From: Dryococelus australis
Lineage: Eukaryota; Arthropoda; Insecta; Phasmatodea; Phasmatidae
NCBI GenBank assembly: GCA_029891345.1
Contig: CM057009.1
Coordinates: 290,418,966-290,482,965 of the forward strand
Length of the DNA stretch: 64,000 bases
Direction: 5' to 3'
Shown piece after piece: positions 31,400-59,254 of this stretch (positions are counted from its first letter, which is position 1; every line of letters begins with the position of its first letter). Made by a program: the position numbers and the translations under genes. The notes below the pieces were generated by a model. That model made no database searches. It was given only the letters and a program-made list of their open reading frames with translations, and was not told the DNA's origin.

Positions 31400-32110
31400 C
31401 TTTGAGCTCACCCACTGGAACACAATTGCACCAATACCCACTCATTTCATCCTTTCTTTTAAACCTATAACGAACAGGCCAAAAAGAGAACCAAAAACTA
31501 AACAAAATTCATCATTAGAAGAGTAAACTTTTTTGTGGAAAAATCCAAATACTAGAAATGCATTTGTTCAAACAAAGCTGGGATAAGGATTCTATTCTAC
31601 TGGTTAACACTCGCTTTACAAATTTAATATATATTTTATTGAGCCATCTCAACATAGGCATATAAAAAGCAAATATTTGAACAACAGAAAATTATATTTG
31701 ACTCCAAAAATGAATATTGTTTTCTTGAAACACTCTGTAACATCAGAAAAATATATTTTGTTTATTTTGACTTTATTTAGACATATTAAAAAAAAAAAGC
31801 AGCAACAAAATATTTGAGTTGTATTAACTCCACTTACACATACTTGGCAATGCAATATCAACGATATCACTTGCAGTTCAAATTCTTTTTACTCATTATA
31901 AAACAACAATGTTTACACCGAACCATAAAATCTACCGATCTATTCCAGGTTCCTGGTCAACCAGTTTGGCATTTACAACTGGCCTTAAAAACACCTATTA
32001 TATCTCTTAAAATCCAAGTACCAAAAATTACTACAATAATATCACAATGTTCCAATACAAATATTTATAGTGCTCATACACAAAATATACAGATATAGAG
32101 AAACGCCTCA
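31400..32110. other. AT-rich spacer with minus-strand poly(A) signal
   Basis: On the minus strand 'aataaagtc' lies near 31765-31780, downstream of the unexplained minus-strand segment 32119-33250 and possibly its polyadenylation signal. Nothing else recognised. Confidence 0.3.
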
Positions 32111-32118
32111 AATACATA

Positions 32119-33250
32119 TTATAATGCCTTTAGCACACCAAAATGCAGCGGCGAATAAACAGTCTCAAGATCTCCAAAAACTAAATTGGTATGATCTCCA
32201 TCCCTTTCCGAAAGTACTCTCTTGAACAGGGACCTTGCCAGATACACAATTTCACAATCAGCAATATCAACCAGTGAGAAAAAGGCCCGAGGATATTCTC
32301 CCCGCGATAACCACACTGTGGTACGAATTGCCTCTTCCCACTCCACTCAAACACACACTCGCACACACACAAGGTCCTAATCTAAGGATTAGCCCATAAA
32401 CCATTCCTACTCACTCTGCTAGTGTTCCCTTGCCAACCCTCAAACAGCCTGCACTTTTGCCTGATCAGTAAAAGTACTAACACCCCGTATGAACTGAACC
32501 AGAACACTTCTTCCAGGCCTGCATGAGTTAAGGGAACCCTAAATATACAACAAGCCCCATTGCCTCGTGTCCATGTTTTCCTCACAACCGGCTTACTCCC
32601 GGATTTTGAAAACCTACTGGTCACTTCTGTTTCACCGGCTTTACCTCCCGGACTCCAGAACATGCACCAGCGACACGACTGCTGGCACCCGACACACACT
32701 GTTCCCGAACAATCTACTTCTCGATACTTCAAGAGGCTTTCCCGGACCATCAATTTCCTCGAACTCTAATTCTGTCCCATTCAACTCTTCGCAACACCAG
32801 ACTCGATTACTGTGCACCTCCGACGATAAATCCTCATCGGCCATGCGAGTAAAAATTCTATGTTCCACTTCAGAACTACTCGTCCTGAGACTAAGTCTTC
32901 AATAAGCATCACTTGCAGAAACTTGTACCGGACTGGCTTTTCGCAAAAAAAATCCTAAGTTCAACTCCTGAACCACTTGTTCAGAAACAAAGTCTTTTCT
33001 TCGCATCACTCGCAAAAACTAAGTCCAACACGAAACCCTAGCCGAATTTTTATAAGTGCCACTATCACACGACTCGTCCAACGACTAAGTCCACTACAGC
33101 ACTAATAGTCCAGAATATAAGTTCTTTTCTACTGCGAAGATGATAAGTCCGAAGCCAATAATTAACTGCTGCTCATACGCCGAAGAAGACTTCTTCTTGA
33201 CCAAGGAGGACTCCAACAAATTATTGACTTTTCGGTGCCATATTTTGAAA
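32119..33250 (-). other. Transcript-like minus-strand segment with degenerate tandem units, unrecognised
   Basis: Less AT-rich than its surroundings. On the minus strand 32830-33150 is built from degenerate units starting 'gacttagt', each followed by variants of 'ggacgagt', 'gttctgaagtggaac' and 'atttttgcg'. This continues into an open frame from 32868 (MADEDLSSEVHSN, then acidic ELEFEEIDGPGKP) that stops at 32641. A donor-like 'gggaggtaaag' lies just before that stop. A second frame at 32119-32346 reads EYPRAFFSLVDIADCEIVYL. No family was recognised. It may be the remains of a host transcript or the leader and 5' gene of an unknown retroelement. Confidence 0.3.
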
Positions 33251-34594: not shown

Positions 34595-35305
34595 GCTGGG
34601 CTCACAACCACCCGTCGCACCCTTTAATCGCCCATCCGTCAGTCAGTCAGTCATCCGTCTGTTTCTTCGTCCGTCAGTTGAAAGCGACTCACAAGAATCC
34701 GCCGTCCGTAGATCCTTCTGTCCTGCAAAATATCAGCGTGACAACTTAATATCGCTATCTTTCTTTTGTAGAAGGTATATTTTGGTTGGAAATACATTTG
34801 CAAGAGAGAAACATTTTGTGGAAATAATTTTTTTTACATAATAAAAATTTATACTAAATTACTGTTAACGTTTTAAATTCCTGAATTTACCACCAAGATA
34901 AATAAACACATATCCACCGCCTTGCATTTCATTTCAAAGTGCGTATTCACATGTATGGGATGTCGTCAGAAAGCAGGAGCCACGGTGGCTGAGTGGATAG
35001 CCTGCGCGCCTCCCACCAAGGTGAACAGGGTTCAATCCCCGGCCGTGTCGCCGGATTTTGCTCCATGCTCACCTCAATCACACTCATAGGCTCTCATGAC
35101 CTCGCTGTTAAAAGCCGCTCAAATCTCTTCACTCACTCCTTCGTCAGAAGGCGGTGGCCCATCCGTCCGTCTGTCGAAAGTTAAAGTTTGAGATAAATTT
35201 GCCGGATCGACGGATAGAAGAAAAAAAAAAGTTATCCTCCGATTGGTTAAAGATCACGTGACCGCCTGACGGACGGGCGACTGACGGATGGTTGTGAGTC
35301 CAGCT
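34595..35305. mobile_element. CCGTC-rich inverted-repeat DNA transposon carrying a nested SINE
   Basis: The left end reads 'gctgggctcacaaccacccg' and the right end, inverted, 'gctggactcacaaccatccg', both followed by multiple 'cgtccgtc'/'ccgtcagt' subterminal motifs. A second pair of such motif clusters lies at 35155-35230. The body has no transposase frame. A family 1 SINE sits inside at 34977-35140, so the transposon inserted first. A relative with different outer bases is at 54813-55468. Superfamily not assigned. Confidence 0.6.
34977..35140 (+). repeat. tRNA-derived SINE, family 1 (nested)
   Basis: Starts 'gagccacggtggctgagtgg' (A-box-like), then 'gcctcccaccaagg', 'gggttcaatccccggcc' (B box) and the shortened body ending 'aaatctcttcactcactcc'. 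The middle part of the family body ('gatctcccg...') is missing in this copy. Confidence 0.7.
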
Positions 35306-35485
35306 TTACTTTTTGGTAATGGATCTTCAGCATCTTCGTAAAACTGCTTAAGCCTCGGTTTCATTTGAAGTGACCTCCTGACGGATGGGCGACTGACGGA
35401 TGGTTGTGAGTCCAGCTTTACTATTTGGTAATGGAACTTCATCATCTTCGTAAAACTGCTTAAGCCTCGGTTTCATTTGAAGTGA
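35262..35485 (+). repeat. 112 bp tandem duplication at the end of the CCGTC-rich transposon
   Basis: Two direct copies with 112 bp period, the first starting 'ccgcctgacggacgggcgac' and the second 'cctcctgacggatgggcgac'. Each contains the transposon's right end and then 'ggtaatgga(t/a)cttca(g/t)catcttcg'. A third unit begins at 35486 but stops after 5-6 bases. The duplication therefore joined transposon end and flank. Confidence 0.75.
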
Positions 35486-35734
35486 CCGCCTCGAAGAACG
35501 TGCAACGCACCCTCGCCAAATTGTAAATACCAAGGAAGCATACAGCAGTTTTTTTGGCAAGGTTCTGTTTACCTCAGCACGTGTGCTCAGTGTGAAGTTT
35601 GACGTCCAGCTGTGAGTAGCGCTAGAAATGAACGCAATTTTTCAACTGGACGCACAGGCACAAACTACGATGTAAAAAATATTTGTAGTTATTTTGTTGA
35701 AGTTGTTTGATGCGGTGGTAAATCACTGTCAACG

Positions 35735-38556: not shown

Positions 38557-38850
38557 GGCTAAATTTAGGCTCTAAAAATTTTTAAACAGGATCTCCCCAA
38601 AACAAGCAATTTTCCTCGAAAATAATGAAAATTAAAGCCAAAATAAAGAAAATTTTCTATTTTACCAAAAATACCGTATCAATTTGTGCCACTTAAAAAC
38701 ATCGAAATTTAAGCAAACAACAAGCAAATTTGTTGCATTTCAAGCAATTTTTCATGTTTTTTTTTTAGAAATGTCAAATTTGTAAGCCAGCAAATCTTAA
38801 TCAAGCAAATTAAGTTAAAAATTAAATAAAAAGATACGAATTAATATGAT
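38557..38850 (+). repeat. Left terminal inverted repeat of the Polinton element
   Basis: Outer part reads 'aggctctaaaaatttttaaa' then 'caggatctccccaaaacaag' and 'caattttcctc'. Inner part has 'ccaaaaatacc', 'aatttgtgccacttaaaaa', 'aagcaatttttcatg', 'aatcttaatcaagcaaatta' and 'gatacgaattaatat'. Each block has its inverted partner, in the same order, at 47341-47629, with many substitutions and small gaps. Exact outer edge is uncertain by about 10 bp. Confidence 0.85.
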
Positions 38851-38858
38851 TTATAAAT

Positions 38859-39062
38859 TTATTCATCAAAAGTAAAACTCCAATAACACTCTTTAAAGTC
38901 TAAAAGTAAAGAAAAATCTGAAGCATAACCATTACTGTTTCCACAATTCCATCCATCACAACAATTCAAATAATAAACATCTTCTTTAAAATTAGAAAAT
39001 TTATCTGAACTTAAATAATTTTTATTGATTTTTAAAACAATTAAATATCCCAAGGTTTTCAA
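38859..39062 (-). CDS. Small unrecognised ORF next to the left TIR
   Basis: 67 residues, MKTLGYLIVLKINKNYL at the start, a central CCDGWNCG cluster and an acidic aromatic end that stops 9 bp from the TIR. It lies downstream of the capsid gene on the same strand. No family was recognised; it may be a surviving fragment of a longer protein. Confidence 0.3.
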   Translation of the reverse strand: MKTLGYLIVLKINKNYLSSDKFSNFKEDVYYLNCCDGWNCGNSNGYASDFSLLLDFKECYWSFTFDE

Positions 39063-39187
39063 ATATCTATAACATAATCAATTTATAGTATTAAAAATTT
39101 ATATATGTTTTATAAAAAAGTGATACTATGAGAAAATTTTAATTAGAATTACGATTTTTTATTCGATGAAATTATTCATCTATATTT

Positions 39188-40587
39188 CTAGAAATTCGTA
39201 AAACTTTTAAATGTAACCATTGAACTACGAGTCTTAAAATATTGTATTAAAATATCGAACCAATTTGTTGGTTTTTTCCATTTAATAAAATTAAAAAAAA
39301 ATATATTTTCAGTAATCCTCTCTTTCAAATAATCATATGTTAAATTCCGTTGACTAACTAGAACAACATTACAAATCGTATGTGCTTCAACAGCTTTGTT
39401 AAAACCAACACAAATTTTTATGTTTGTTTTATCTTTAACTACAGTTGTTTTTCTATATTAACAATCAATAACATATAATAGTATTCGCCTCCAAAATGAA
39501 TAAAAATTGGTTTTACCATCATAGTTCACAGTAGGTTTATAATAAAGTTAATTATTTCTATAGTCGGTAGTTGGTTTTGTTTCTAAATTTCTAAAGTCAT
39601 TGTAAACAAGAAACTGTTCACTGCAGAGATCATGTTCAATATCTAGATTCCAGTTTTCCTTTGGAAAAATCTCATTTCGTCCATTTTTAACATAAATATT
39701 TCTCACAATACAACGATCAAGCATAGAAACATGGACATACCTTTCAGCATAATTTTTTCTATTAATTTGAAAGCCTACAATTACAAACTCAGGCATCTCA
39801 AACTATAAATTATTAAACTGATCTTTTATACCAAAGTTAAAAGTTGTTCCTTCAGGAACTTCTTTTTCTAAAAATTGCCAATAATTAAAATTAATAGAAA
39901 TTTTAGGCTCTTTGTATATTTTTCTTTAATTGCAATGGCTGTGTTAGATTCGTATTCAAAAATAGGCCACATAATTTCTGATTTATGAATACCAATTCTA
40001 CCTGGATCGGCATAACTTGGATGTGTGACAAATTCGTCCTCATATAAAATTGTTATCAGATGAATTACGGGAAAATGTGGTTTTATAACCACCTTGCCAG
40101 TAAATTTCAGCATTATCTCTGATAAAGCCAAACAAATATCTCAATGGGTAAATTATTTCATTTAGTGTATCACTAGGTACAGATTTTACTCGGTATTTAT
40201 TATCAAAACCAGTAGCCTCTAAATGATTTTGCTCACCTGGGGATCTTAACAAAACATTCATCATTGTTGAAGTTAATACAGGATTATCAACAGCTTCAAT
40301 AATATTACCATGTTTTGAGATTTCTACTCTAGAAAACTGAAATGGAAAAAAATTAGAGAACAAACATCAACACTGTCTTCGTGTTTGTATTCTGCGTCAG
40401 CCACCACTTTATCTCTATTTAGTAACTTTAATTGCTCAAAAACATAAGCATCAGTTGGGAAAGAAAAGCCATCTCCTATAGGAATACCAAATTCGGTTCT
40501 ATTATTGTAAACATTTAAATTCCCCCTAGTTTGGTCAATTGGGGGAAAATTTTGCCTCTCGAAGCTCTCGATACTTTTATAACTCAT
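39188..40587 (-). pseudogene. Polinton major capsid protein (double jelly-roll, hexon-like), frameshifted
   Basis: Starts at the ATG at 40585-40587 and runs, with at least three frame changes, to a stop at 39188-39190 (about 465 codons). The N-terminal region has FPPIDQTRGNLNVYNN. A central region with FSRVEISKHGNIIEAVDNP and a following TSTMMNVLL fits the first jelly-roll junction of adintovirus/Polinton capsids. The later block PEFVIVGFQINRKN, then CIVRNIYVKNGR and LVYNDFRNLE fits the second jelly roll, and LYVIDC follows near 39460-39480, where a stop appears. Frame breaks fall near 40330, 40040-40130, 39800-39870 and 39460. The protein would have formed the hexameric capsomer of the particle. 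Its start lies only 27 bp from the divergent plus-strand ORF start at 40615. Confidence 0.75.
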
Positions 40588-40614
40588 TTAGAAGAAAAAA
40601 AATAATATATATTA
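40588..40614. promoter_or_regulatory. Putative divergent promoter between capsid gene and plus-strand ORF
   Basis: Only 27 bp separate the two divergent start codons. It is A-rich on the plus strand ('gaagaaaaaaaataat') with 'atatat' near 40606. Inference only: the control region must overlap one or both genes. Confidence 0.3.
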
Positions 40615-41625
40615 ATGAAAGAATCAAAGGATGTTTCTCGAGTTAAATTACTCATCGAGAGGTATAGAAATTATTTAAGAAAAAAAACACGAAGTGGAAT
40701 ATAAAATAAATAAGAAAAAATAGCTGCCATTAATTGACGAATTACGAAATAGTGGTAAAAAAGTATAAAAAGTAAGTGGAGAAAATAAAAATTTAATAAC
40801 AACACTAGTTCTTGTTGTAGCAAAAAATTTAGATTATTCACCTACTCCTGAAGAAACATCTTTTGAGAGAGAATTATTCCCAAAATCCCCTAATTTGGAA
40901 GAACAAATGGGAATTGTAGCTTTGAAAATTTGATGCAGCGTGCATATGATATACTTTAAATCTCGGAAAAGAAATTGATAAAAAAATTTATTTTCAAACA
41001 CTATGGTTTACGAGTAAAAAATCGTAAATTAGAAATTAGAGATACAGAAGTAAAGATAAATAATGATAAACTATCTGTTAATGGTAAAGAATATATATTA
41101 ACAGGAGGCATTTCTAATCTGTTTACAAAAGAAAAATAACCAGATATTAAGGATAAATATACTGAGGATGACTATGAAACACAAAGATATTGTTATAGAC
41201 AAAAATGTTGCATTCTGAGGATATGATCCTCATAAACAAATAAATGCGAATCAAAGTTGGAAGTACGAGAATATAATTCAACCATGTTATGATTCAACCA
41301 TGTTATGATTCAACGATGTTATGAATCAACCATGTTATGATCTAATTAACGAAAGACATATAAAGCCGCAATCAAAATCAGCGTCAAACACACCCGAAAC
41401 AGCAATTTTTCACATTTGATGATTTTCAATTTGGAGACGGCATAAAACATACAATAGTTTGCCGAAAAAATATGTTTGGATGGGTGATGTAAGAAATTTA
41501 ATTAACAGATTGTTAGTTATTCATAGTGAAGAAAATGCTGGGGGAAAAAAAATATTATAATGAAAAAGTAAGCATAATGAATATGCTGAACAATAAATTT
41601 TCTGATTTTGTTGTTAATAATCCAA
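40615..41625 (+). pseudogene. Conserved Polinton ORF of unknown function (PY-like)
   Basis: Start at the ATG at 40615 with MKESKDVSRVKLLIERYRNY. Further on come VKNRKLEIRDTEVKINNDKL and VNGKEYILTGGISNLFTKEK (40990-41138), then YTEDDYETQ, YDPHKQINANQSWKYENI (41220-41272), and finally KKYVWMGDVRNLINRLL (41465-41518). I recall this order of blocks from a conserved but unassigned ORF in arthropod Polintons, sometimes discussed as a structural or core protein; the label is uncertain. Several stops and frame changes separate the blocks. A 16 bp tandem array (41271-41340) sits inside it right after the NANQSWKYENI block and shifts the frame. It precedes the PLA2-like gene, as expected for a late structural gene cluster. 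Confidence 0.55.
41271..41340 (+). repeat. 16 bp x 4 tandem array within the PY-like ORF
   Basis: Four near-identical units of 'attcaaccatgttatg' type (one with 'acgatg', one with 'gaatcaacc'). The first unit overlaps the end of a conserved protein block, so it arose by local duplication after the gene decayed or by slippage. Confidence 0.75.
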
Positions 41626-42037
41626 AAGGAATTCCTTATCTAATAAGAATTTTAAATGTAATTCCACACACATTTTGGAGTTCTGAACACCATGGCAAAC
41701 GTATCATAAATTGGGCATTAAGTAATTTAAATTTGCCCGAAATGCATTTACCTGGCTATAATTATAATGGTCCATTTACAAAATTAAACGAAAGTTTACA
41801 TAGAGGAGATGCATGAATAAATAAATTAGGCGAAGCTTGTAAATATCATGATATTGCATATAGAGATCATAAAGATTTAGAATCTAGACGTGATGCTGAT
41901 AAAATTTTCAGGAAGGAGCTCAAGAAATCATGTTAGATAAAAATACTCCAATTGGAGAAAAAATTGCTTTTGCTGCCGTTGCTTCAACAATATTTACAAA
42001 AAGAAAATTAAATTGGAGTATTAAAATGTTTTATTGA
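41577..42037 (+). pseudogene. PLA2-like minor capsid protein remnant
   Basis: After an N-terminal lead (PKGIPYLIRILNVIPH) the frame reads EMHLPGYNYNGPFTKL, the calcium-loop region of parvovirus/Polinton-type phospholipase A2 domains. A stop at about 41815 follows HRGDA, and the same frame then reads KLGEACKYHDIAYRDHKDL, with the catalytic HD-x-x-Y pair intact. After a frame change near 41920 comes DKNTPIGEKIAFAAVA, ending at 42035-42037. In parvoviruses this domain is used for membrane escape during entry; in Polintons it is part of a minor structural protein. In the calcium loop the second glycine of the usual Y-x-G-x-G is F here, so the loop is altered. Non-functional as it stands. Confidence 0.7.
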
Positions 42038-42062
42038 ATATATATATATTTTGCTTATATAA

Positions 42063-42467
42063 ATGATGATAACAAATATAACTTTTGATGATCCTTCTGA
42101 GGAATTAAAAAATTTGGGTATAGATTCATTTTTTAACACAATATCAAATTGAGAGAAAAAATAAAAAAATTGAAAGAAGGTGAAAGTTTCATATTAACTT
42201 TGGTATTTCCAACAGTCAAAAAGATGGTCAAAGAAAAAACTGGCAACGGTTTACATCATGGAGGATTTCTACCAATTATATTGATTGCTTTTGGTGCACT
42301 TGGTGGTTTAGCTGGAGGAGCTAGTGAAATTTATAATTCTGTTGAACAAACTAGAAAAATATAAATTAGAAGAACAACAAAATTATAATTTAGCAATGGA
42401 AAATAAATCAGGAAGTGGATTAAAAAGAGGAAGGCCAAAAAAATTTGAATGTATACCCACTATCTAA
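42063..42467 (+). pseudogene. pX-like virion core protein remnant
   Basis: A possible start at 42063 gives MMITNITFDDPSEELKN, with a stop near 42150. The main block at 42149-42364 reads KTGNGLHHGGFLPIILIAFG followed by ALGGLAGGASEIYNSVEQ, a glycine/alanine-rich hydrophobic segment followed by helix, characteristic of the pX-like protein of adintoviruses and Polintons. After a one-base frame change near 42362 it continues NYNLAMENKSGSGLKRGRPK, a basic tail. The family is thought to be a DNA-condensing or membrane-active minor virion protein. It overlaps the protease region by about 20 bp, in line with a compact late gene cluster. Confidence 0.65.
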
Positions 42468-42805
42468 TATCAATATTGAAAAAACATGTAAATATATTAA
42501 AAATAAAAAAAATCAGAAAAGTTTATATAATTGGTGAATCACCAAAAAATATGCACAAAAATGAATGTGCAATGGTTAATTTTGACATTTCAAAAAATCC
42601 CGGAACTCATTGGGTTTGCTATTTTAAAGAAAATAACAATGCCTTCTATTTTAATTCATTTGGAGGCGATATTCCTAGTAATTTAACCAATTATTTTAAA
42701 AACAGAAATATTTATTATAATGATGATCGAGTTAAGAATTTTAATTCAGTTATATGTGGACATCTATGTTTAATTGTTTTATATTTTTTTTCGACAGAAT
42801 TTTAG
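42449..42805 (+). pseudogene. Adenain-like (C5/Ulp1-type) cysteine protease remnant
   Basis: An open frame of 118 codons with the conserved blocks in order: PKNMHKNECAMVNFD, NPGTHWVCYFK (catalytic His), FYFNSFGGDIP (acid position) and NSVICGHLCLIVLYF (nucleophile Cys). Upstream, the family's PLSN-x-x-I entry is present at 42457-42480 but in another frame, with the break in an A run near 42505-42516. Two active-site changes are visible: the acidic residue before SFG is Asn instead of Asp, and the residue seven before the cysteine, usually Gln of the oxyanion hole, is Lys. Related proteases mature capsid proteins in adenoviruses and Polintons. Probably inactive. Confidence 0.8.
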
Positions 42806-43660
42806 TTTAATGATATAATTTATTTGTAATTAAGTTACAGGTGTATTTGGGAAACCATTAATAAAATCTTTAAATAATTTTTTTTTTACTCTAACACCTA
42901 CGATATAAAATCATATGTAGATTCACATTGCAATCCGAGTGTTTCTTTTTTACAAAGTGAACTATCCAACTGTTTTGATTACATAAAATATTATGTTGCT
43001 TTTCTAGGACATAGAATTGTTAATATAGGTGAACCTGTAAATATTAAAAACGTGGACAATAACATACATATCGATATATATAGGATACTATGCATTAAAA
43101 AAGGATGTAGATTCGAAATATAAAATTATTGTTTCTGATTATGCTTTAAAAGAAGATATAAAATTTACAATTCAGTAACACTATTGATGATTGTATAAAA
43201 CGAATAAATAACGCAAAGCAGGCATTAAAAAATGATGTAGATTAAAAATATAAAACTACTGTTTCTGATTACGCTTTAAAAAACCGATGTAGATACAAAA
43301 TCCAATACTAGTGTTTCTGATTTAAAATCATACGTAGAATCAAAATGTAATATCATTGTTTCCGCTTTACGAGACCAAATAAACAAAGTTTTTGTTTATA
43401 TAACATAGTATGTTTCTCCTCAAAATCGTAGAATTAAAAATATGGCTGATCCTATAGATGGAAAAGATGCTGTCAATGAAAGATATTTTGATAAAGAAAT
43501 AGCTGATAAATTACCTAATTAAAACCAATCAGTTTTGAATTATTGTGATACAGTGGTTAACTTGAAAGTTGAAGAAAAATCTCATATATTTTATTTTCCT
43601 GCAAAGTGGAATAAAAAAACTGATAATTTTCATTTAGATAATCTATTTTTCTTTTCTTTT
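42806..43660 (+). pseudogene. Fibre-like coiled protein remnant with tandem modules
   Basis: The plus strand shows broken frames with YDIKSYVDSHCN near 42899-42934, HRIVNIGEPVNIKN near 43010-43050, three related modules with the core DVD-S/T-K-x-x-T/I-x-VSD (43092-43154, 43222-43284, 43285-43340) and NRRIKNMADPIDGKDAVNER near 43425-43482. The 'R-I-x-N-(V/M)-x-(D/E)-P-(V/I)-x-x-x-D-A-V-N-x-(K/R)-Y' signature is typical of phage-tail and adenovirus-like fibre shafts, where it marks trimeric coiled or beta segments. Several stops are present. In Polintons a fibre-like ORF is reported in some lineages only. Role (host attachment) is inferred from the signature. Confidence 0.5.
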
Positions 43661-43662
43661 TT

Positions 43663-43869
43663 ATGGATTGTACTGTTTATAAAATAATTTCTTATAATTT
43701 ACCTAATGATACTCTATCTGTTATTAAGGATTCCAAAAAAATTTATCATAGTAATACATTCGATGTTAAAAGAGGCGATAAATTTGTTTTTAAGATTAAA
43801 AAAAAAATATCTGAATATGCGGATGCCTTTGTGACTATAATAGGAATATTAGTGAAATATAAAGATTAA
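43663..43869 (+). CDS. Small ORF after the fibre-like remnant, unrecognised
   Basis: 68 residues, MDCTVYKIISYNL at the start, SNTFDVKRGDKFVFKIKKK in the middle. Predicted mostly beta strand with a basic patch; it could be the terminal head of the fibre-like protein. The stop codon (43867-43869) overlaps the polymerase remnant's stop on the other strand (43866-43868). Function unknown. Confidence 0.35.
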   Translation: MDCTVYKIISYNLPNDTLSVIKDSKKIYHSNTFDVKRGDKFVFKIKKKISEYADAFVTIIGILVKYKD

Positions 43870-45890
43870 CTATATAAATCAATATTTTTGTCATTATAGC
43901 TTAAACCTTTAAAAAATAAATCTTCATCATATCCAGCTAAATTATGGAAATCAATTGGTACTAAATAAGGCAATTTTAATTGTAGATTACAATTATTACA
44001 TGCAGGATTAATGAATTTTCCACTTATGTGATAATGATGATGTACTTTGTTATTCTCTTCTGTATACGCACATTCACATACAGTACATTTTTGAGATCTG
44101 TTCTATGTCGCTCTTTCTTCTTCTGATAGCGAATGCATTGGTTCAATTTGTAAATATATTTCACCAATTTCTTCTACTTCCCTTTTGATTGATTGTATAA
44201 AAATTTTATGAGCATTTGGGCCTCGATATACAACTGGTGGCTTATAATCACCATAATGAGATACAATATAATAAAAAAAATCAGATACCTCGTGTAATTG
44301 ATATTTCATAGTATATGATTCATTATTCAATTTTAAATAAATTGTTATTTATTTGTTCATTAGTAAGATTATATAGTTCTTTAAGTATCTCCTCATAAAG
44401 ACCAATATCGATATCATCTTCTGTTAAAACTGGGAATTTTTTGATTAATTTAAACTTACTAATTTCCTTTGGATTTGGCTTAACTGTTGATATATTCTTT
44501 AAAATTGATTCAAAATCGGCATATATTGTAAAAGGAACCGCCAATGTACGTTTATAATTTTTTAAAAATATATGCTTTCCTTTCGAGGGTAAAGTGATTT
44601 TTACTGCTTCAATTTTAGGGAGTCTTCTGTATGTTTTTTAATTTTTCTTACGAATAAAAATATTTAAGACACATATCATATATATACGTTTTTCCATGCT
44701 TATTATTTTTTTGCATTGAAAGCAGTCTCGATAAGTCTTTAATCCAACAGTAATGTGAGTCATCATCTTCTTTGCAATAAAATAAATTTATATGCTTATC
44801 CTTTTTACTTTTTGTAAGTTTTAGTGGATATACCATGGATTTATTATCTTCAGCTTCAATAGAGTATACATTTATAGAAGTATCGATTTGATTTTCTATT
44901 TTTGGTATATCATCACTTTTGACTATCTATTACTTTATCAATATCAAATCCCACATTTTTATATTTGGTTACTCTATCTGAATTTTTGTCTGTTGGAAAT
45001 AATGCAGATTTTACTGCCAAAAGAAAGCATTTTTAATCGTTATTATTTACATTTATGCAAACTATTTATTCTTACTAGATTCTGGTTGTTCTATATATGT
45101 TGCTCCATTTAATGGATTATACTTTTTTAGTGCTAATTGATTTCCGATTATTCTATCTAAAGTCCATCCTGAGCCTCTTCTTTGAAATTCAGATAATTGT
45201 GTAATTATTTATTGGTATATGAATTTATAAATCCTTTTAATATCTCCTTCATTCAATATTGTATAATTGGGTGATTGAAATGTGAATAATTCTACTTGAT
45301 TATTTTCTTGTTTGCGACAATTGGCATATAAGTTAATGCTGGTTTTCAACCCTCTAAATGTTCTAAGATTATTGCGTATTATCTCAAAAACTATAGTATT
45401 TATAAAATGTAAAAATCGATTAGGCTCTACTAAATTTAAAGAATTTTCAATGTTATATGTTGATATCCTACTTTTAAAGGCTTTATTAAATAAGCAAATT
45501 TTATTGGTTATTCTTCTATTTCTTTTGCTATCAAATAAATTATCATAGAATGGGAATATTTCTTCCAATTCCTTTCTATCTTCGGGATATAACTCATTGA
45601 TAGTTGCGTCAGCCAAAGGTAAATTTGTGAAAATATTCTTTGTTATCCCTTGTTTTACAGGCTGGCTTTTATTTATAAGTTTTACAAATATATTATTAGA
45701 AAATGGGAACATTTTTTAAATTCCCTTTTCTCTTGTTTTACAAATAGATTATTAGAAAGTGGGAATATTTCTTTTAATTACTTTTTCTCTTGTTCTACAA
45801 TAAATGGAAATTTTTTTTCAATTTTTTTTATCTTTCTTATATAATTCATTGATATTGGAATAAGAAAATGTCAAATTTGCAAAGTTTCTT
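43866..45890 (-). pseudogene. Protein-primed family B DNA polymerase, N-terminal and exonuclease part only
   Basis: Minus-strand blocks in order: an N-terminal region at 45209-45712 with FLHFINTIVFEIIRNNL; SEFQRRGSGWTLDRI and KYNPLNGATYI (45120-45205); a CFLLAVKSALFPTD block near 45010; SHYCWIKDLSRLLSMQ (44700-44765) followed by a zinc-type Cys pair; VPFTIYADFESIL (44500-44542), the Exo I motif with both acids; VYRGPNAHKIFIQSI near 44210; a C-x2-C...H-x-H cluster near 44040-44090; and FHNLAGYDEDLF (43924-43960), the Exo II motif. After that the frame stops at 43866-43868. Exo III and all palm motifs, including the metal-binding D-x-D region, are absent. This polymerase would have copied the element using a terminal protein; here it is cut short and frameshifted. 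Confidence 0.8.
45665..45890 (-). repeat. Tandemly duplicated module at the polymerase N terminus
   Basis: On the minus strand 'attcccactttctaataatc' plus 'tatttgtaaaacaagagaaa' recurs 40-50 bp downstream as 'gttcccattttctaataata' plus 'tatttgtaaaac'. The preceding 'aatgaattatataagaaaga' resembles the later coding block starting NELYPEDRKE at about 45590. This gives two to three diverged copies of one coding module. Confidence 0.5.
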
Positions 45891-45895
45891 TTTCT

Positions 45896-46150
45896 TTACT
45901 CATTAATAATAGTTGTAATTATATTTGCTTTCCATAAATTATTTATATGTGTTATGTTAAAGATTTTAGCTTTATTTCTTAAATCCGCAACTGTTAAATC
46001 ATTTAGATTTTCTGCTGCTTGACGAATTTTTGTAATAATATCATCTTTACATAATTTAGATAATTTTTTTATGTTTAATTCGCTAGCTATAACTCTCAAC
46101 TCGGTCACTCTCCTTTCGCTCAGATCTACTACTGAATAATTCGCAGCCAT
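45896..46150 (-). CDS. Small two-motif SAP/HeH-like DNA-binding protein
   Basis: An uninterrupted 84-residue frame starting MAANYSVVDLSE. Two similar helix-extended-helix motifs are visible: residues about 15-44 (TELRVIASELNIKKLSKLCK, then DDIITKI) and residues about 51-81 (LTVADLRNKAKIFNITHINN, then LWKANIITTI). The pattern L-x-x-x-A-x-x-x-x-I-x-x-x-x-x-L-x-K-x-x-(I/L)-I fits SAP or Rho-N/HeH domains, which bind DNA or RNA. It lies directly upstream of the polymerase on the same strand with a gap of a few bases, suggesting co-transcription. It is one of the few frames in the element without a visible break. Function in replication or DNA packaging is inference. Confidence 0.55.
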   Translation of the reverse strand: MAANYSVVDLSERRVTELRVIASELNIKKLSKLCKDDIITKIRQAAENLNDLTVADLRNKAKIFNITHINNLWKANIITTIINE

Positions 46151-46266
46151 AGTTGTTTATGTATAAGAAATAAACATTTATAAACGTTTTAAAAATAAAG
46201 AAATGAAGAAATGTAAAAAATAAAGAAAATACTAGAATTAAGTGTTTAAAATATTGATAGTAATTT

Positions 46267-46730
46267 TTAAAAATATTTAACTTCTTCTGTGATAATATTT
46301 CTCACTACAGCATTTTTGCATATTGTTGAATATTTGTCTTTAGTGTGTTTATTAATATAAAATAATTTTATAGATTTATTCTCATTACAAACTGTGCATG
46401 TTTTTGTTGGGTAATTATAATTTTGAATTCTATTAAGAATATCTATTGATGTATTGTGTGATTTAGTATTTTTATGCTCTTTGATATATAATACAAACAT
46501 ATTTTCTACATTCACATAGTATTTTCTCATTAAAACATTCTTTAAATTTTGTTGTATGTTTGTCTATAATCTCTTTATGAGGGTAAAATAAATCAATAGA
46601 TTTATTCTCATTACATACTAATGTCTTAGTTGAATAATCATGTCGAATTTCATTTGTATTGTGTGATTTACTATTTTTATGCTTTTTGAGGTATAGTTTA
46701 GAAACATATTTTCCACATTCGCATAGCACA

Positions 46731-46781
<51 letters not shown>

Positions 46782-46946
46782 CTCATATTGATTTTTGGCA
46801 TATTCAGTAGAACATTTTTTACATTTGTTAATATGTTTATCTTTAGTGTGTTTATGTAATGCAATACTTTACATGTTTAATACATCGCCACGTATTTTTA
46901 CATTGCTTATATATGGTATTATTTTCCATTTCAAGCATAGTTTCCA
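46267..46946 (-). pseudogene. Zinc-motif repeat protein remnant
   Basis: From a possible ATG at 46944-46946 (METMLEMENNTIYKQCKN) the minus strand continues after a frame change with HTKDKHINKCKKCSTEYAKN, is interrupted by a 44-base homopolymer, and then shows repeated units of two kinds: CECGKYVSKLYLKKHKNSKS, a C-x-C...H...H finger, and KTCTVCNENKSIKLFYINKH with a later C, a zinc-ribbon-like unit. Two to three cycles alternate in two frames (46472-46729 and 46267-46530). Similar alternating motifs occur in large DNA viruses. Role unknown, presumably nucleic-acid binding. Confidence 0.45.
46736..46779 (+). repeat. Poly(T) tract of 44 bases
   Basis: Uninterrupted T run within the zinc-motif remnant, equal to poly(A) on the coding strand. 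Could be slippage of a lysine codon run, or an assembly artefact in length. Confidence 0.9.
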
Positions 46947-47019
46947 TTTTATTTATTAAGAAAATTAATTTATTGAGAGAATGAAAAAGTATTTTTCTTT
47001 AATTTTTTTTTTTTTTTTT

Positions 47020-47335
47020 CCTTTTAAAGAAACACGAAACTGGAGGCTCTGCTCAACAAATTGAGCAATTCATATGAATTCACTAAACTAACAGATCTAG
47101 AAATTGATAAATGGTATGAAGCCACAGATTTTCAAATTTATGAATCTAAATTCGGTAAAAAAAATTAATTGTTTTCTAGACAATAGGTATAAAATTACTT
47201 TACCAGATCGCTATGCAAAGATAATTGATGAAAATGATTAAAAATTGATAAATGAGAAACAAGTTTTTGTGGCAGATAAAGGTTTAAAGTGAATAATGGA
47301 AAAACTATGCATGATATTGTATTCATGTAATAAAC
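47020..47335 (+). pseudogene. Small OB-fold-like Polinton protein remnant
   Basis: The plus strand reads KLTDLEIDKWYEATDFQIYE, then KFGKK and, after a one-base change near 47166, NCFLDNRYKITLPDRYAKII, a stop near 47240, then QVFVADKG. I recall this pattern ('L-x-x-x-x-Y-x-(V/A)-x-x-x-x-x-x-x-(K/Y)-(F/Y)-G, then a leucine-proline-x-R-Y' block) from a small conserved ORF in many arthropod Polintons and related repeats. It has the look of an OB-fold single-strand-binding protein, but no function is proven. It lies just inside the right TIR. No clear start codon remains. Confidence 0.5.
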
Positions 47336-47340
47336 TGAAT

Positions 47341-47629
47341 TATATTAATTTGTATCTTTTAATTTGATGTTTACTTAATTTGCTTGGTTAAGATTTCTCG
47401 CTTGCAAAATTGACATTTCTATTTAAAATGTGAAAAATTGCTTTTAGGGTGAGAAATGAGCATGTTTTTTGCTTAAATTTTTTTTTTTTTAAGTGGCACA
47501 ATTTGACAGGGTATTTTTGGCAAAATTGTAAATTTGCTTGATTTTGGCTTAAATCTACACAATTACGGAGGAAAATTGCTTGTTTTGGGGAGCTCCTGTT
47601 TTAAAATTTTTAGGGCCTACATTTCGCCT
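47341..47629 (-). repeat. Right terminal inverted repeat of the Polinton element
   Basis: Inverted partner of 38557-38850. Read on the minus strand from 47629: 'aggcgaaatgtaggccctaa', 'aaattttaaaacaggagct', 'ccccaaaacaagcaattttc', 'aagccaaaatcaagcaaatt', 'gccaaaaatacc', 'tgtgccacttaaaaaa', 'gaaatgtcaattttgcaag', 'aatcttaaccaagcaaatta' and 'gatacaaattaatata'. Confidence 0.85.
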
Positions 47630-49160
47630 CAAAAACCTGGATTTTGGAGCAAAACACCTCGAAATTCCGATGAAAATAACTTTTACGAACTAATTGTAGA
47701 GGAATATTTAGAGAATATTATTCACGATTTGTAGGAGAAATGAGACCTCAGTCATATCATTGTAATGTTAAATACGAGTACTATAGAATTTTCGTCAATA
47801 TAGTCTATGATTATCACTTGTTTGTTCAAATTATTAGAAAATCGAGTCATCAACTGAGAATGAAACAACTTGTGAACAGAAGAAACATTTCAAACAACAT
47901 CTGAAGGCTATTAAACTGATATTTAAGAAGTTTCACGAAGACTGTCGTAGGTTTGAAGAAAAGGCTATGCAAAATTATGAAACTGCATTGTTGACCTTCG
48001 ATTCACTTGTGAGCGAATTATACTAGCCGAGATAAATATAGGAATACAAGTGCTACCCACAAATGTAACAGGGGTACATATTTTGTCAAATGCATTTCCG
48101 GGGTACAATTTCAACTATAGGCTACAATGATGCAGTATCTGTAATCTATATTCCTTGGTGTATTTCAGCAGACTAAAGAAATGCACTCAATATTTTCCCA
48201 TTTCTGGCCACAGTTTCCTTCCCTATGATAGTTCGATATCATCGATGACATTAAAAATAAACGTGAAAAGTTGAGACATATTTAGGTAAGCGTAAAGTGA
48301 TCCAAGAAAGTTTCATGTTATTTCCGTGAATTTTGACGTGTTTAATGACTTCAAGGCTATATCCGTAAAATGTTCCCACAATCTGTTACCAGAAGTGACA
48401 TAAAGAGTCAGATACCAAGGAAAAAGAAACTGGATTACTTTTAACACACAGGCATGAAATATCAGCAGCACAAACAATGGTAGGAGCAGTGTGGGAATCT
48501 CCACGTATTCAGAGGACACGAACACAGAAATCTTTCTCTCCAAACGAACCACTTTAAAATGACGTGCTGTTAAAAAACACAGTTAGGTTATGCGGTGTTA
48601 GCTACCTGTGTGCTGTGTAAGTATCTTAAGGTAGGGTCATAGGCTGTTTAGCTTCTCTAAAAGCAGAAGAAGGTGAATGCAATATTGCTGGTAAAAATTA
48701 TTTACGTATACAAACATGTACATATGTCACTTATAGTGCTGTTTTAACAATTGCCTACTTGATATTGTAGGAAAACTGAAATTTAAATAAAGTTAATATT
48801 AGTATCAGAATGTTATTGAAAATAATCGTGAAACCATTTAACACCTACGATACTGACCTCCTGTGCCACTTTTCATAGGGTTTTACTGTATTGTTAGACA
48901 GCACCCCTTACCTCGCGCTTGTAAAGTGCACAGCTAGACATGACATCCGTTCGCAATCGTCCACACCTCAATCATAAGACAGAAATAACTTCCTCATGCA
49001 AAACTGTTCGTAATGGAGTTGGGGTTTTTGATTTTGGATGCTTCAGTTTTACTAACCGTTCTTATTTTCATTTCCGTGAACGAGCGGGAGAGCCATCTAC
49101 CGCCATTTCAGCGACTCCAGTTGTTAGTAAGTGCCAAGACGGTCCTGACCAGTAATGATA
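47630..49160. other. Gene-free spacer right of the Polinton element
   Basis: AT-rich. A 79-residue minus frame at 48313-48552 is unrecognised. At 48645-48700 'taggctgtttagctt' weakly recalls a family B end. Confidence 0.45.
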
Positions 49161-56107: not shown

Positions 56108-56345
56108 TTGGGGCCACAGTGGCTAAGCGGTTAGCCCGGTCGCCTCCCACCTAGGCGATCCGGGTTCAATCCCCGGCCGGTCTCCGAATTTTCGCATGTG
56201 GGATCGAGCCGGGGTGGCAAACCCACCCACCCGTTGGTCGGTGGGTTTTCTCGGGATCTCCCGTTTCCTCCGCCCTTTCATTCCGGCGCTGCTCCATACT
56301 CACCTCAATGACCGGCATCGGCTCTCAATACCGCGATGTCAAAGG
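56108..56345 (+). repeat. tRNA-derived SINE, family 1 (most complete copy)
   Basis: 'tggggccacagtggctaagc' (A box), 'gcctcccacctaggcg', 'gggttcaatccccggcc' (B box), then 'ttttcgcatgtgggatcgag', 'gggttttctcgggatctccc', 'ttcattccggcgctgctcca', 'actcacctcaatgaccggca' and 'cggctctcaataccgcgatg'. It gives the plus-sense order for the family. Confidence 0.75.
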
Positions 56346-57030
56346 CAAAGGATACCTTCGACCTATGAGAAATTCCATTTGTCTGCGCCACGGGTACCGT
56401 GCAGGAAACAAACTGTTGTCCGTATATCTGTCTCGCTCCCGTGTTTCAGATCTCGCTTTAGAACGTGAGGATTTCTCCCCCAAGTGCGATAAAGAGTTCC
56501 AACACAAGACAGTCCCCAAAAAAACTGCCTGGAAACCACCGCCATGTTGGCAAATGTAAACTGCTAGCGGATAAACCAGTTCTAGGTAGGCAGATCATTC
56601 CCTCCCTTTCACTGCTGCTTGATGACAGCACCAAACTTTGTAATATGTTCACCATATGTTTCGTTCTGATCAATTTTAGACAAGTGATTCACGTGGCTGT
56701 AGTTGCGAAGTTTCGGTTTTTGAGTACAGAATTTCATTGTATTTATTGGTGTTTAAGAATGCATTTTTTACATATTAAATAAATAAATATACATTATAAT
56801 ACGTAAGAAAATAACAATATACATTGCGAAAATTACAAGATTCAGTTTTCTGTACGTAGTCAAGTAGATAAGGAAAAAATAATGATCCATAAAATTACAA
56901 ATGTCAGTACTTTGCACAAAGCCAAAAATGAATATTTACAATATTTTGTATTAAGTTACTTGTGTGTAGATGATGCAAAAATATACATCTGCAAAGTTCA
57001 CTGTTCACAAACACTCTTTAGTTGAGGATT
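56346..57030. other. Gene-free spacer
   Basis: 56350-56560 is less AT-rich with overlapping frames but no recognised protein. Confidence 0.4.
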
Positions 57031-58385: not shown

Positions 58386-58580
58386 ATTTGTTTGCAATGT
58401 AATTTCATGTTTAGCATCATCCAACAAGCATTTACTACACAAAACTAACAATTTGTTTGCAATGTAATTTCATGTTTAGCACCATCTAACAAGCATTTAC
58501 TACACAAAACTATCAATTTGTTTGCAATGTAATTTCATGTTTAGCATCATCTAACAAGCATTTGATACACAAAACTATCA
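58386..58580 (+). repeat. 65 bp x 3 tandem repeat
   Basis: Three consecutive copies with an exact 65 bp period starting at 58386, 58451 and 58516. Each begins 'atttgtttgcaatgtaattt' and ends 'acacaaaact(a/t)(a/t)ca'. Only a handful of base differences. Confidence 0.95.
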
Positions 58581-59254
58581 ATTTTATAGGCCACATCAGA
58601 ATTCAGGTATTAAAAATAACAATTTTTCTCCAGATAAACTCATTAAAATTCTTATGATAAACAAGCCGAGCAGTAAAAAAACGGCCCACAATGCTAACGT
58701 TACATAACAATGAGAAGTCGTACTTTCGTCACGGACGGGTGCATTGGTACATAACCAGCATTCTTTCGGAAATAATTTCAATGATGACCGCTATCAATAT
58801 ACTCCATTATACAAGTATCCCCTGACTAATAAATCCGTTAATAATAATTTGGAACAGCTGTGTACTCGGCACTATGTTGACCTTCAACAAAACGGTTTGT
58901 TATACTCTATAAATTGATAGAAATTTGCCGGAAAAATATCTTACTATGTCCGTTACGTTAGGGGTATTTATTTATTTCATTTAATTTCGTCTTTCTTTGG
59001 CGAAGCTAGGCTAAAATGCCTTCTCTCACAGTTAACAAAATTGAATACGACGGAGCACATACATAAAGGTTATTTTAAGAAACTGTACTCTGTTAGGAAC
59101 GTTGTATGAAAACTGTAGACATGATTGGTCGGAACTGACGAGCGACTTACAGGAAAGTTTTTGTAACACCATAAACTTAATGTTTTTAGCGTTAAACGTG
59201 TGAAACGAGATTATGTAGGAGCGACGAATGCAGTAGTGGGGGATATATGAGTAC
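58581..59254. other. Gene-free spacer
   Basis: Nothing recognised. Confidence 0.45.

What the first reader, a model, noticed from the sequence alone, without database searches (positions are those of the whole stretch)
38557..47629. A 9.1 kb fossil Polinton/adintovirus element with recognisable TIRs and a near-complete structural gene set
Inverted repeats of ~290 bp flank capsid, PLA2-like, pX-like, protease, fibre-like and polymerase remains. That set is diagnostic of virus-like Polintons. Very AT-rich composition sets it apart from the host flanks.
Basis: partly seen in the sequence, partly recalled or inferred. Interest (0 to 1): 0.85.

Follow-up and report, generated by a model that had tools for sequence, protein, structure and literature searches.

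The report
Decayed, internally deleted Maverick/Polinton copy
This is the broken remains of a virus-like jumping element of a known kind (Polinton/Maverick), one of more than a hundred copies in its host genome; it is a sound identification but not a new kind of thing.

Summary
In detail: two inverted arms (38557-38851, 47338-47628; 82% identical) enclose a 9.1 kb block of 25.9% GC (37.3% outside) with remains of double-jelly-roll capsid, PLA2-like and adenain-like protease genes, weaker pX-like and fibre-like pieces, and the N-terminal part of a family B DNA polymerase. The Polinton reading is right; three details are not. (1) The coordinates are not the element's ends: relatives carry about 83 and 33 bp more, so both tips are lost. 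(2) The set is not near complete: two fuller relatives hold about 7-8 kb more in the middle (rve integrase, weak A32-like ATPase, more PolB), lost here by a deletion at 43870-43879 not seen in 39 other scored copies. (3) Adintovirus membership is not shown. The family is multi-copy: 178 termini, control 0. Flanking hexamers agree at >=5 of 6 bases in 10 of 15 paired elements (2 of 210 mismatched pairs) and in 4 of 4 others. Twenty PolB pieces differ about equally at all codon positions, as expected after a burst and neutral decay. Closest in print: PLA2-bearing Sf Mavericks. New member of a known kind.

The parts
38557..38870 (+). Left terminal inverted repeat, outer ~83 bp missing compared with relatives
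38859..39077 (-). Remains of a small ORF next to the left TIR; relative in L031:737-1102; function unknown
   Evidence: no Pfam hit up to E=5
39188..40587 (-). Double-jelly-roll major capsid gene, broken into at least five frame fragments
   Evidence: PF21738 6.2e-5 and 0.0014, under cut-off; 150 matches scored in the host genome. That 39188-39457 is its C-terminus is recalled similarity, not a profile hit
40769..41218 (+). Broken unknown ORF upstream of PLA2
   Evidence: 40960-41139 has no Pfam hit of note
41517..41936 (+). Parvovirus VP1-type phospholipase A2-like gene, interrupted by one in-frame stop
   Evidence: PF08398 0.0025, profile 2-19; PF08398 2e-5, above cut-off, profile 24-64; pieces searched apart
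42137..42364 (+). pX-like (adenovirus core protein X-like) piece, weak
   Evidence: the window piece has no hit, relative L031:3962-4333 hits PF05829 at 0.011, below cut-off
42449..42805 (+). Adenain-like cysteine protease; the frame is open for 118 codons, one conserved acidic column reads Asn
42878..43620 (+). Fibre-like gene with short repeats (52-bp units at 43225-43322), broken
   Evidence: naming rests on recalled motifs, no profile hit for 42878-43123
43870..43879 (.). Junction of an internal deletion of ~7-8 kb, with a few bp of shared sequence
43866..45715 (-). N-terminal part of family B DNA polymerase (by recalled motifs: terminal-protein-like region, OTU-like region, exonuclease motifs); the frame ends at the deletion junction
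   Evidence: domain scheme from passages of PMC11071308
45896..46156 (-). Tandem Rho_N/SAP domain ORF upstream of PolB
   Evidence: PF07498 1.3e-11, two stretches; PF02037 0.0014
46267..46777 (-). Repeated zinc-finger-like (recalled pattern) Cys/His ORF remains
   Evidence: no Pfam hit of note
47330..47679 (-). Right terminal inverted repeat, outermost ~33 bp missing

Best explanation
The region is a dead copy of a Polinton/Maverick family. An intact element of this kind would be a linear dsDNA of about 14-17 kb with long TIRs starting AGTAGATATATAAG, copied by its own PolB, packaged by an A32-like ATPase into a DJR capsid matured by an adenain-like protease, and inserted by an rve integrase with a 6-bp target-site duplication; the PLA2-like protein would help the particle through a membrane, as in parvoviruses. 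Shown here: TIRs, target-site duplications, gene remains, multiple copies, divergence pattern. Inferred from the known families: replication, packaging, entry. The family amplified from near-identical sources, and the 20 PolB pieces compared then decayed without visible coding constraint. The window copy also lost both tips and a ~7-8 kb central block, so it lacks integrase and the catalytic part of PolB and can neither replicate nor integrate by itself.
For: TIRs far above background. Relatives' TIRs reach further out. 6-bp flanks match at >=5 of 6 positions in 10 of 15 paired elements, against 2 of 210 mismatched pairs, and in 4 of 4 further elements, three of them exact. Terminus pattern: 94+84 hits, control 0; of the 100 places listed, 15 inward-facing and 0 outward-facing pairs within 30 kb. 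rve integrase PF00665 1.1e-11, above cut-off, and PolB PF03175 7.1e-6 in relatives. DJR, PLA2, protease and Rho_N pieces in the window. Window colinear with L031 over 38558-43875 and with the PolB side of L029, L032, L033 and L036. 39 of 39 other scored junction hits match one side only (40 scored of 2495 first-look candidates). Per-codon-position differences 0.130, 0.128, 0.127 over 190 pairs of 20 copies.
Against: The window copy itself has no integrase, no PolB beyond the N-terminal part and no target-site duplication; these are shown only in relatives. The DJR hits and the ATPase hit are below Pfam's cut-offs. The palm domain is not shown by profile even in relatives (L040:2864-3406 no hit). 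No penton was recognised. The window's own TIR arms differ more (K2P 0.195) than its polymerase piece differs from its nearest relative (0.092), so one date does not fit all parts. In the codon test indels shift the frame in some pairs, which blurs differences; the one pair printed apart (window and L010) has 9, 18 and 16 differences at 166 sites each. No relative was found in IMG/VR in five scans.
Confidence: 0.95

Rival explanations
1. An endogenised adintovirus in the strict sense (exogenous virus of Adintoviridae that integrated). Not exclusive of the best explanation, since adintoviruses are Polinton-like.
For: Shared gene set with integrase. Length 13.7-17.0 kb in 10 of 15 pairs; a reported Drosophila-associated adintovirus is 14,567 bp. 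An OTU-like Cys motif (recalled) before the PolB exonuclease region in the window and relatives. By eye the end of L030's integrase piece looks chromodomain-like (recalled).
Against: No chromodomain hit in the integrase C-terminal pieces. No relative in IMG/VR in five scans. High copy number from a near-homogeneous source suggests spread within the genome.
Confidence: 0.25
2. A non-autonomous, amplified deletion subfamily: the 9.1 kb form itself was mobilised in trans and spread.
For: Short forms exist with both ends: 5 of 15 paired elements are 6.2-11.4 kb, and L008 is an 879-bp form with both TIRs and flanking hexamers alike at 5 of 6.
Against: The window's junction is spanned by none of the 39 other scored hits (40 scored of 2495 first-look candidates).
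Confidence: 0.03
3. A host-domesticated element (for example capsid or protease kept as a host gene).
For: Some fragments remain open for more than 100 codons, the protease frame among them.
Against: Capsid, PLA2, fibre-like and PolB regions are broken by stops or frame changes; the difference rates show no constraint in the PolB pieces. The protease was not tested for constraint.
Confidence: 0.01

Closest known systems
Sf Maverick 1 and 2 (Spodoptera frugiperda; PMC5803895, passages read)
   Same: ATPase (A32-like), rve integrase, adenain-like protease, PolB with an endonuclease VII-like region (our 43866-44102 also hits PF02945 at 0.0016, below cut-off) and a protein with a parvovirus-type PLA2 domain
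   Different: Integrase chromodomain reported there, not detected by profile here. The paper says Sf Mavericks lack the usual PY capsid-like gene, while a DJR capsid region is found here. The window copy is broken and deleted.
Polinton/Maverick transposons in general (passages of PMC10175614; PMC8504770)
   Same: DJR capsid, pPolB, cysteine protease, A32-like ATPase, rve integrase; 10-40 kb or 15-30 kb stated there, 6.2-17.0 kb in 15 pairs here
   Different: This copy is 9.1 kb, with tips and centre missing
Adintoviruses (definition read in passages of PMC11071296; Drosophila examples in passages of PMC8363768)
   Same: PolB + integrase + adenovirus-like virion genes, similar length
   Different: OTU domain, chromodomain and hexon not shown here; no exogenous form found
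Bidnaviruses (PMC4061559, passages)
   Same: Polinton-type PolB and parvovirus heritage in insects
   Different: ssDNA; that paper says the bidnavirus capsid lacks PLA2; absence of DJR capsid and integrase there is recalled

Membership tests
Polinton/Maverick | Long terminal inverted repeats | tested here: met
   Window arms 82% over 295 columns; relatives' TIRs start AGTAGATATATAAG or a close variant
Polinton/Maverick | 6-bp target-site duplication (length recalled from the literature, not read in a call) | tested here: met
   For the family: 10 of 15 pairs >=5/6 against 2 of 210, and 4 of 4 further elements. For the window copy it cannot be tested, both tips lost; no empty site found
Polinton/Maverick | rve integrase | tested here: met
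   In relative L030 (PF00665 1.1e-11; an integrase structure, 6qbv, 1.6e-5). Absent from the window copy
[quoted passage not shown]
   Relative L029 PF03175 7.1e-6, just under cut-off, phrog_1907 7.1e-8. Window keeps only the N-terminal part. Protein priming and the palm domain not shown
Polinton/Maverick | Adenain-like cysteine protease | tested here: met
   Profile against 1avp 6.3e-6; Peptidase_C5 in 10 of 29 aligned members at 0.01, the window piece not among them
Polinton/Maverick | Double-jelly-roll major capsid protein | tested here: met
   PF21738 in two window pieces, 6.2e-5 and 0.0014, both under the curated cut-off
Polinton/Maverick | A32-like packaging ATPase | tested here: inconclusive
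   Relative L032 PF04665 0.0053, below cut-off; absent from the window copy
Polinton/Maverick | Minor capsid (penton) protein | tested here: inconclusive
   Unidentified ORF in the missing block (L029:6141-6752) has no Pfam or PHROGs hit
Adintoviridae | PolB with N-terminal OTU-like domain | tested here: inconclusive
   Cys motif seen (recalled) but no OTU profile hit; structure not predicted
Adintoviridae | Integrase with C-terminal chromodomain | tested here: inconclusive
   No chromodomain hit in the C-terminal pieces of two copies, though one looks chromodomain-like by eye
Adintoviridae | Hexon recognisable by BLASTp against reference adintoviruses | not testable with these tools
   No named reference set on hand

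The most novel reading that the evidence does not exclude
A virus-like Polinton with capsid, PLA2 and fibre-like genes spread inside one large animal genome as a true transposon, in one burst from an almost single source sequence to hundreds or thousands of copies, so that its virion genes were carried along rather than used for repeated infection.
Probability: 0.35. Interest if true: 0.45.

Novelty: new member of a known kind. Interest (0 to 1): 0.3.

Why it matters
It confirms a raw-sequence call of a Polinton/Maverick and turns a single fossil into a datable, multi-copy family with paired ends, target-site duplications and many part-open copies. That makes the question of transposon-like burst versus repeated viral infection testable in this genome. 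The element type itself, PLA2 domain included, is already in print for insects (passages of PMC5803895).

Tried and rejected
IMG/VR relatives: five scans (PolB, integrase, capsid, PolB exonuclease region, protease alignment) gave none. Amplified deletion subfamily with the window's junction: not supported, 39 of 39 other scored hits match one side only. Empty insertion site: 400 nt of joined flanks matched only the window's own two halves and one 84-nt piece elsewhere. Chromodomain: no profile hit. Rfam on the window: 0 matches. Host naming: genome size, GC and chromosome-sized contigs (twelve with printed lengths, 92-403 Mb) would fit a cockroach such as Periplaneta americana (passages of PMC12774602), but no barcode was tested, so no host is named. 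A first distance run mixed strands for the polymerase copies; those values were dropped and recomputed with strands set; its TIR values stand. The 15 inward-facing pairs come from the 100 places listed of 178 hits, first read by eye and then checked by script; pairs with unlisted partners are missed. The TSD reading was by eye; one search recomputed it and showed that L008, which I had first taken for a mismatch, agrees at 5 of 6. Structure prediction was not used.
Full report
What is there. Their local score of 315 compares with a maximum of 33 among 200 internal segments and 36 among 716 comparisons outside the element. GC is 25.9% inside and 37.3% outside. Between the arms lie pieces of genes on both strands; the capsid, PLA2, fibre-like and PolB regions are broken by stops or frame changes, while the protease frame is open for 118 codons.

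Genes. Pieces were searched apart. On the minus strand next to the left arm is a DJR capsid gene in several frames (PF21738 6.2e-5 and 0.0014, both under Pfam's cut-off, covering profile positions 181-248 and 4-107 in the right order). On the plus strand follow a PLA2-like gene split by one stop (PF08398 0.0025, and 2e-5, above cut-off), a pX-like piece (only a relative hits PF05829, at 0.011, below cut-off), and a protease. The protease alone hits Peptidase_C5 at 0.016, below cut-off. A search of 5.8 billion proteins gave 5 relatives among 10 candidates with the single sequence, and 7234 of 7993 scored candidates with a 6-sequence alignment. A 29-sequence profile built from the window piece and 28 of the 120 proteins listed hits adenain 1avp at 6.3e-6. 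In that alignment the column that is Asp in 90% or more of the sequences (position 69 of the window piece) reads Asn in the window copy. A fibre-like repeat gene follows; its name rests on recalled motifs. On the minus strand near the right arm are the N-terminal part of PolB, a Rho_N/SAP ORF (PF07498 1.3e-11) and a repeated zinc-finger-like ORF. Passages of PMC11071308 describe an OTU-like protease domain and a terminal-protein domain in protein-primed PolB; the window shows a Cys motif that fits (recalled), but no profile hit supports it.

Ends. In 14 of the 16 relative ends printed the TIR reads from its first bases (AGTAGATATATAAG or a close variant); L029L and L006, written there in a shifted register, show the same start a few bases earlier. 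The window's left arm begins about 83 bp inside that start and its right arm about 33 bp inside. An empty site was not found.

Family. The host genome is 3.415 Gb in 646 contigs. The tool scores only the best candidates, so counts are lower bounds: 151 matches for the PolB piece (9583 first-look candidates), 150 for the protease (15454), 150 for the capsid piece (9935). The 32-nt terminus with up to 3 mismatches occurs 94+84 times, and 0 times in the reversed-pattern control. Among the 100 places listed there are 15 inward-facing pairs within 30 kb and no outward-facing one: 10 span 13.7-17.0 kb and 5 span 6.2-11.4 kb. Flanking hexamers agree at >=5 of 6 bases in 10 of 15 pairs (4 of 6 in four more, 2 of 6 in one), against 2 of 210 mismatched pairs. 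Of four more elements with both ends held, three show exact 6-bp duplications and one, the 879-bp short form L008, agrees at 5 of 6.

What the window copy lost. It is colinear with L031 over 38558-43875, and from 43870-44015 to 47679 with the PolB side of L029, L032, L033 and L036. Between these points L029/L030 hold about 6.9 kb and L031/L032 about 8.1 kb more; only these two fuller relatives were measured. There lie an rve integrase (PF00665 1.1e-11, above cut-off), an A32-like ATPase piece (PF04665 0.0053, weak), further PolB sequence (the PF03175 hit of 7.1e-6 runs across the point where the window's PolB ends) and unidentified ORFs. The palm domain is inferred to follow; a candidate piece (L040:2864-3406) has no profile hit. 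A 211-nt query across the junction found 40 scored places of 2495 first-look candidates; only the window's own spans it, 39 of 39 others match one side. The deletion is therefore private to this copy as far as scored, with a few bp of shared sequence at 43870-43879. Other copies carry other deletions (for example L038).

Age and mode. Among 20 PolB pieces (the window and the 19 next best-scoring places, so a biased sample) K2P over 190 pairs has median 0.134, minimum 0.088, maximum 0.228, and the difference rates at codon positions 1, 2, 3 are 0.130, 0.128, 0.127. Indels shift the frame in some pairs and would blur a difference; the one pair printed apart (window and L010) shows 9, 18 and 16 differences at 166 sites each. 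Equal rates suggest that the copies differ by mutations gained after insertion, not by selection on a replicating lineage: a burst from near-identical sources followed by neutral decay. TIR pairs within elements give K2P 0.114, 0.121, 0.098 and, for the window, 0.195. With a recalled insect rate near 3e-9 per site per year these values mean roughly 16-33 million years; the clock is not calibrated for this host, and the window's TIR value is higher than its PolB value, which is unexplained.

Compared with what is known. Passages of PMC5803895 describe insect Mavericks with ATPase, integrase, adenain-like protease, PolB with an endonuclease VII-like region, and a PLA2-bearing capsid-like protein. 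The same combination, down to a weak endonuclease VII hit (PF02945 0.0016, below cut-off), is seen in this family. PLA2 in such elements is thus already in print, although a search for papers with both 'adintovir' and 'phospholipase A2' gave none. One paper in the library holds Maverick, Polinton and cockroach together (listing only). For adintoviruses the definition read in PMC11071296 (passages) asks for an OTU-bearing PolB, a recognisable hexon and an integrase chromodomain; none could be shown here.

Verdict. An ordinary but well supported fossil Polinton/Maverick: a deletion derivative of a multi-copy family.

Noticed in passing
Relatives' TIR starts (L031, L037): A TATATAAG box sits a few bases inside the terminus, which could act as an inward promoter; not tested.
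   Followed up: no
L008:1418-2296 (host C3): An 879-bp short form with both TIRs and flanking hexamers alike at 5 of 6: a miniature derivative that could have been mobilised in trans.
   Followed up: partly
window 45896-46156: Two Rho_N/SAP-type domains in an ORF just upstream of PolB; a paper search for Rho_N with Polinton terms showed no occurrence of Rho_N in the 10 papers listed of 60.
   Followed up: partly
window 35258-35491 and 58386-58584: Tandem arrays of 112-bp (2.1 copies) and 65-bp (3.1 copies) units outside the element.
   Followed up: no
window 56127-56559: ORFs resembling (recalled, not searched) an interspersed repeat seen in some insects; no Pfam hit for 56155-56559.
   Followed up: no
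window 32001-33000: Strong GC skew of -0.356 at 43.5% GC, cause unknown.
   Followed up: no
L040:6990-8892 and L028:127-837: Frames beside PolB copies look (recalled) like a Gypsy-type pol and a Helitron-type helicase, i.e. other elements nearby.
   Followed up: no
L031:7475-7771: Weak MSV199-domain match (PF10553 0.0023, below cut-off) in the block that the window lacks.
   Followed up: no
window 38557-47679: Window TIR arms (K2P 0.195) are more diverged than three other elements' arms (0.098-0.121); unexplained.
   Followed up: partly
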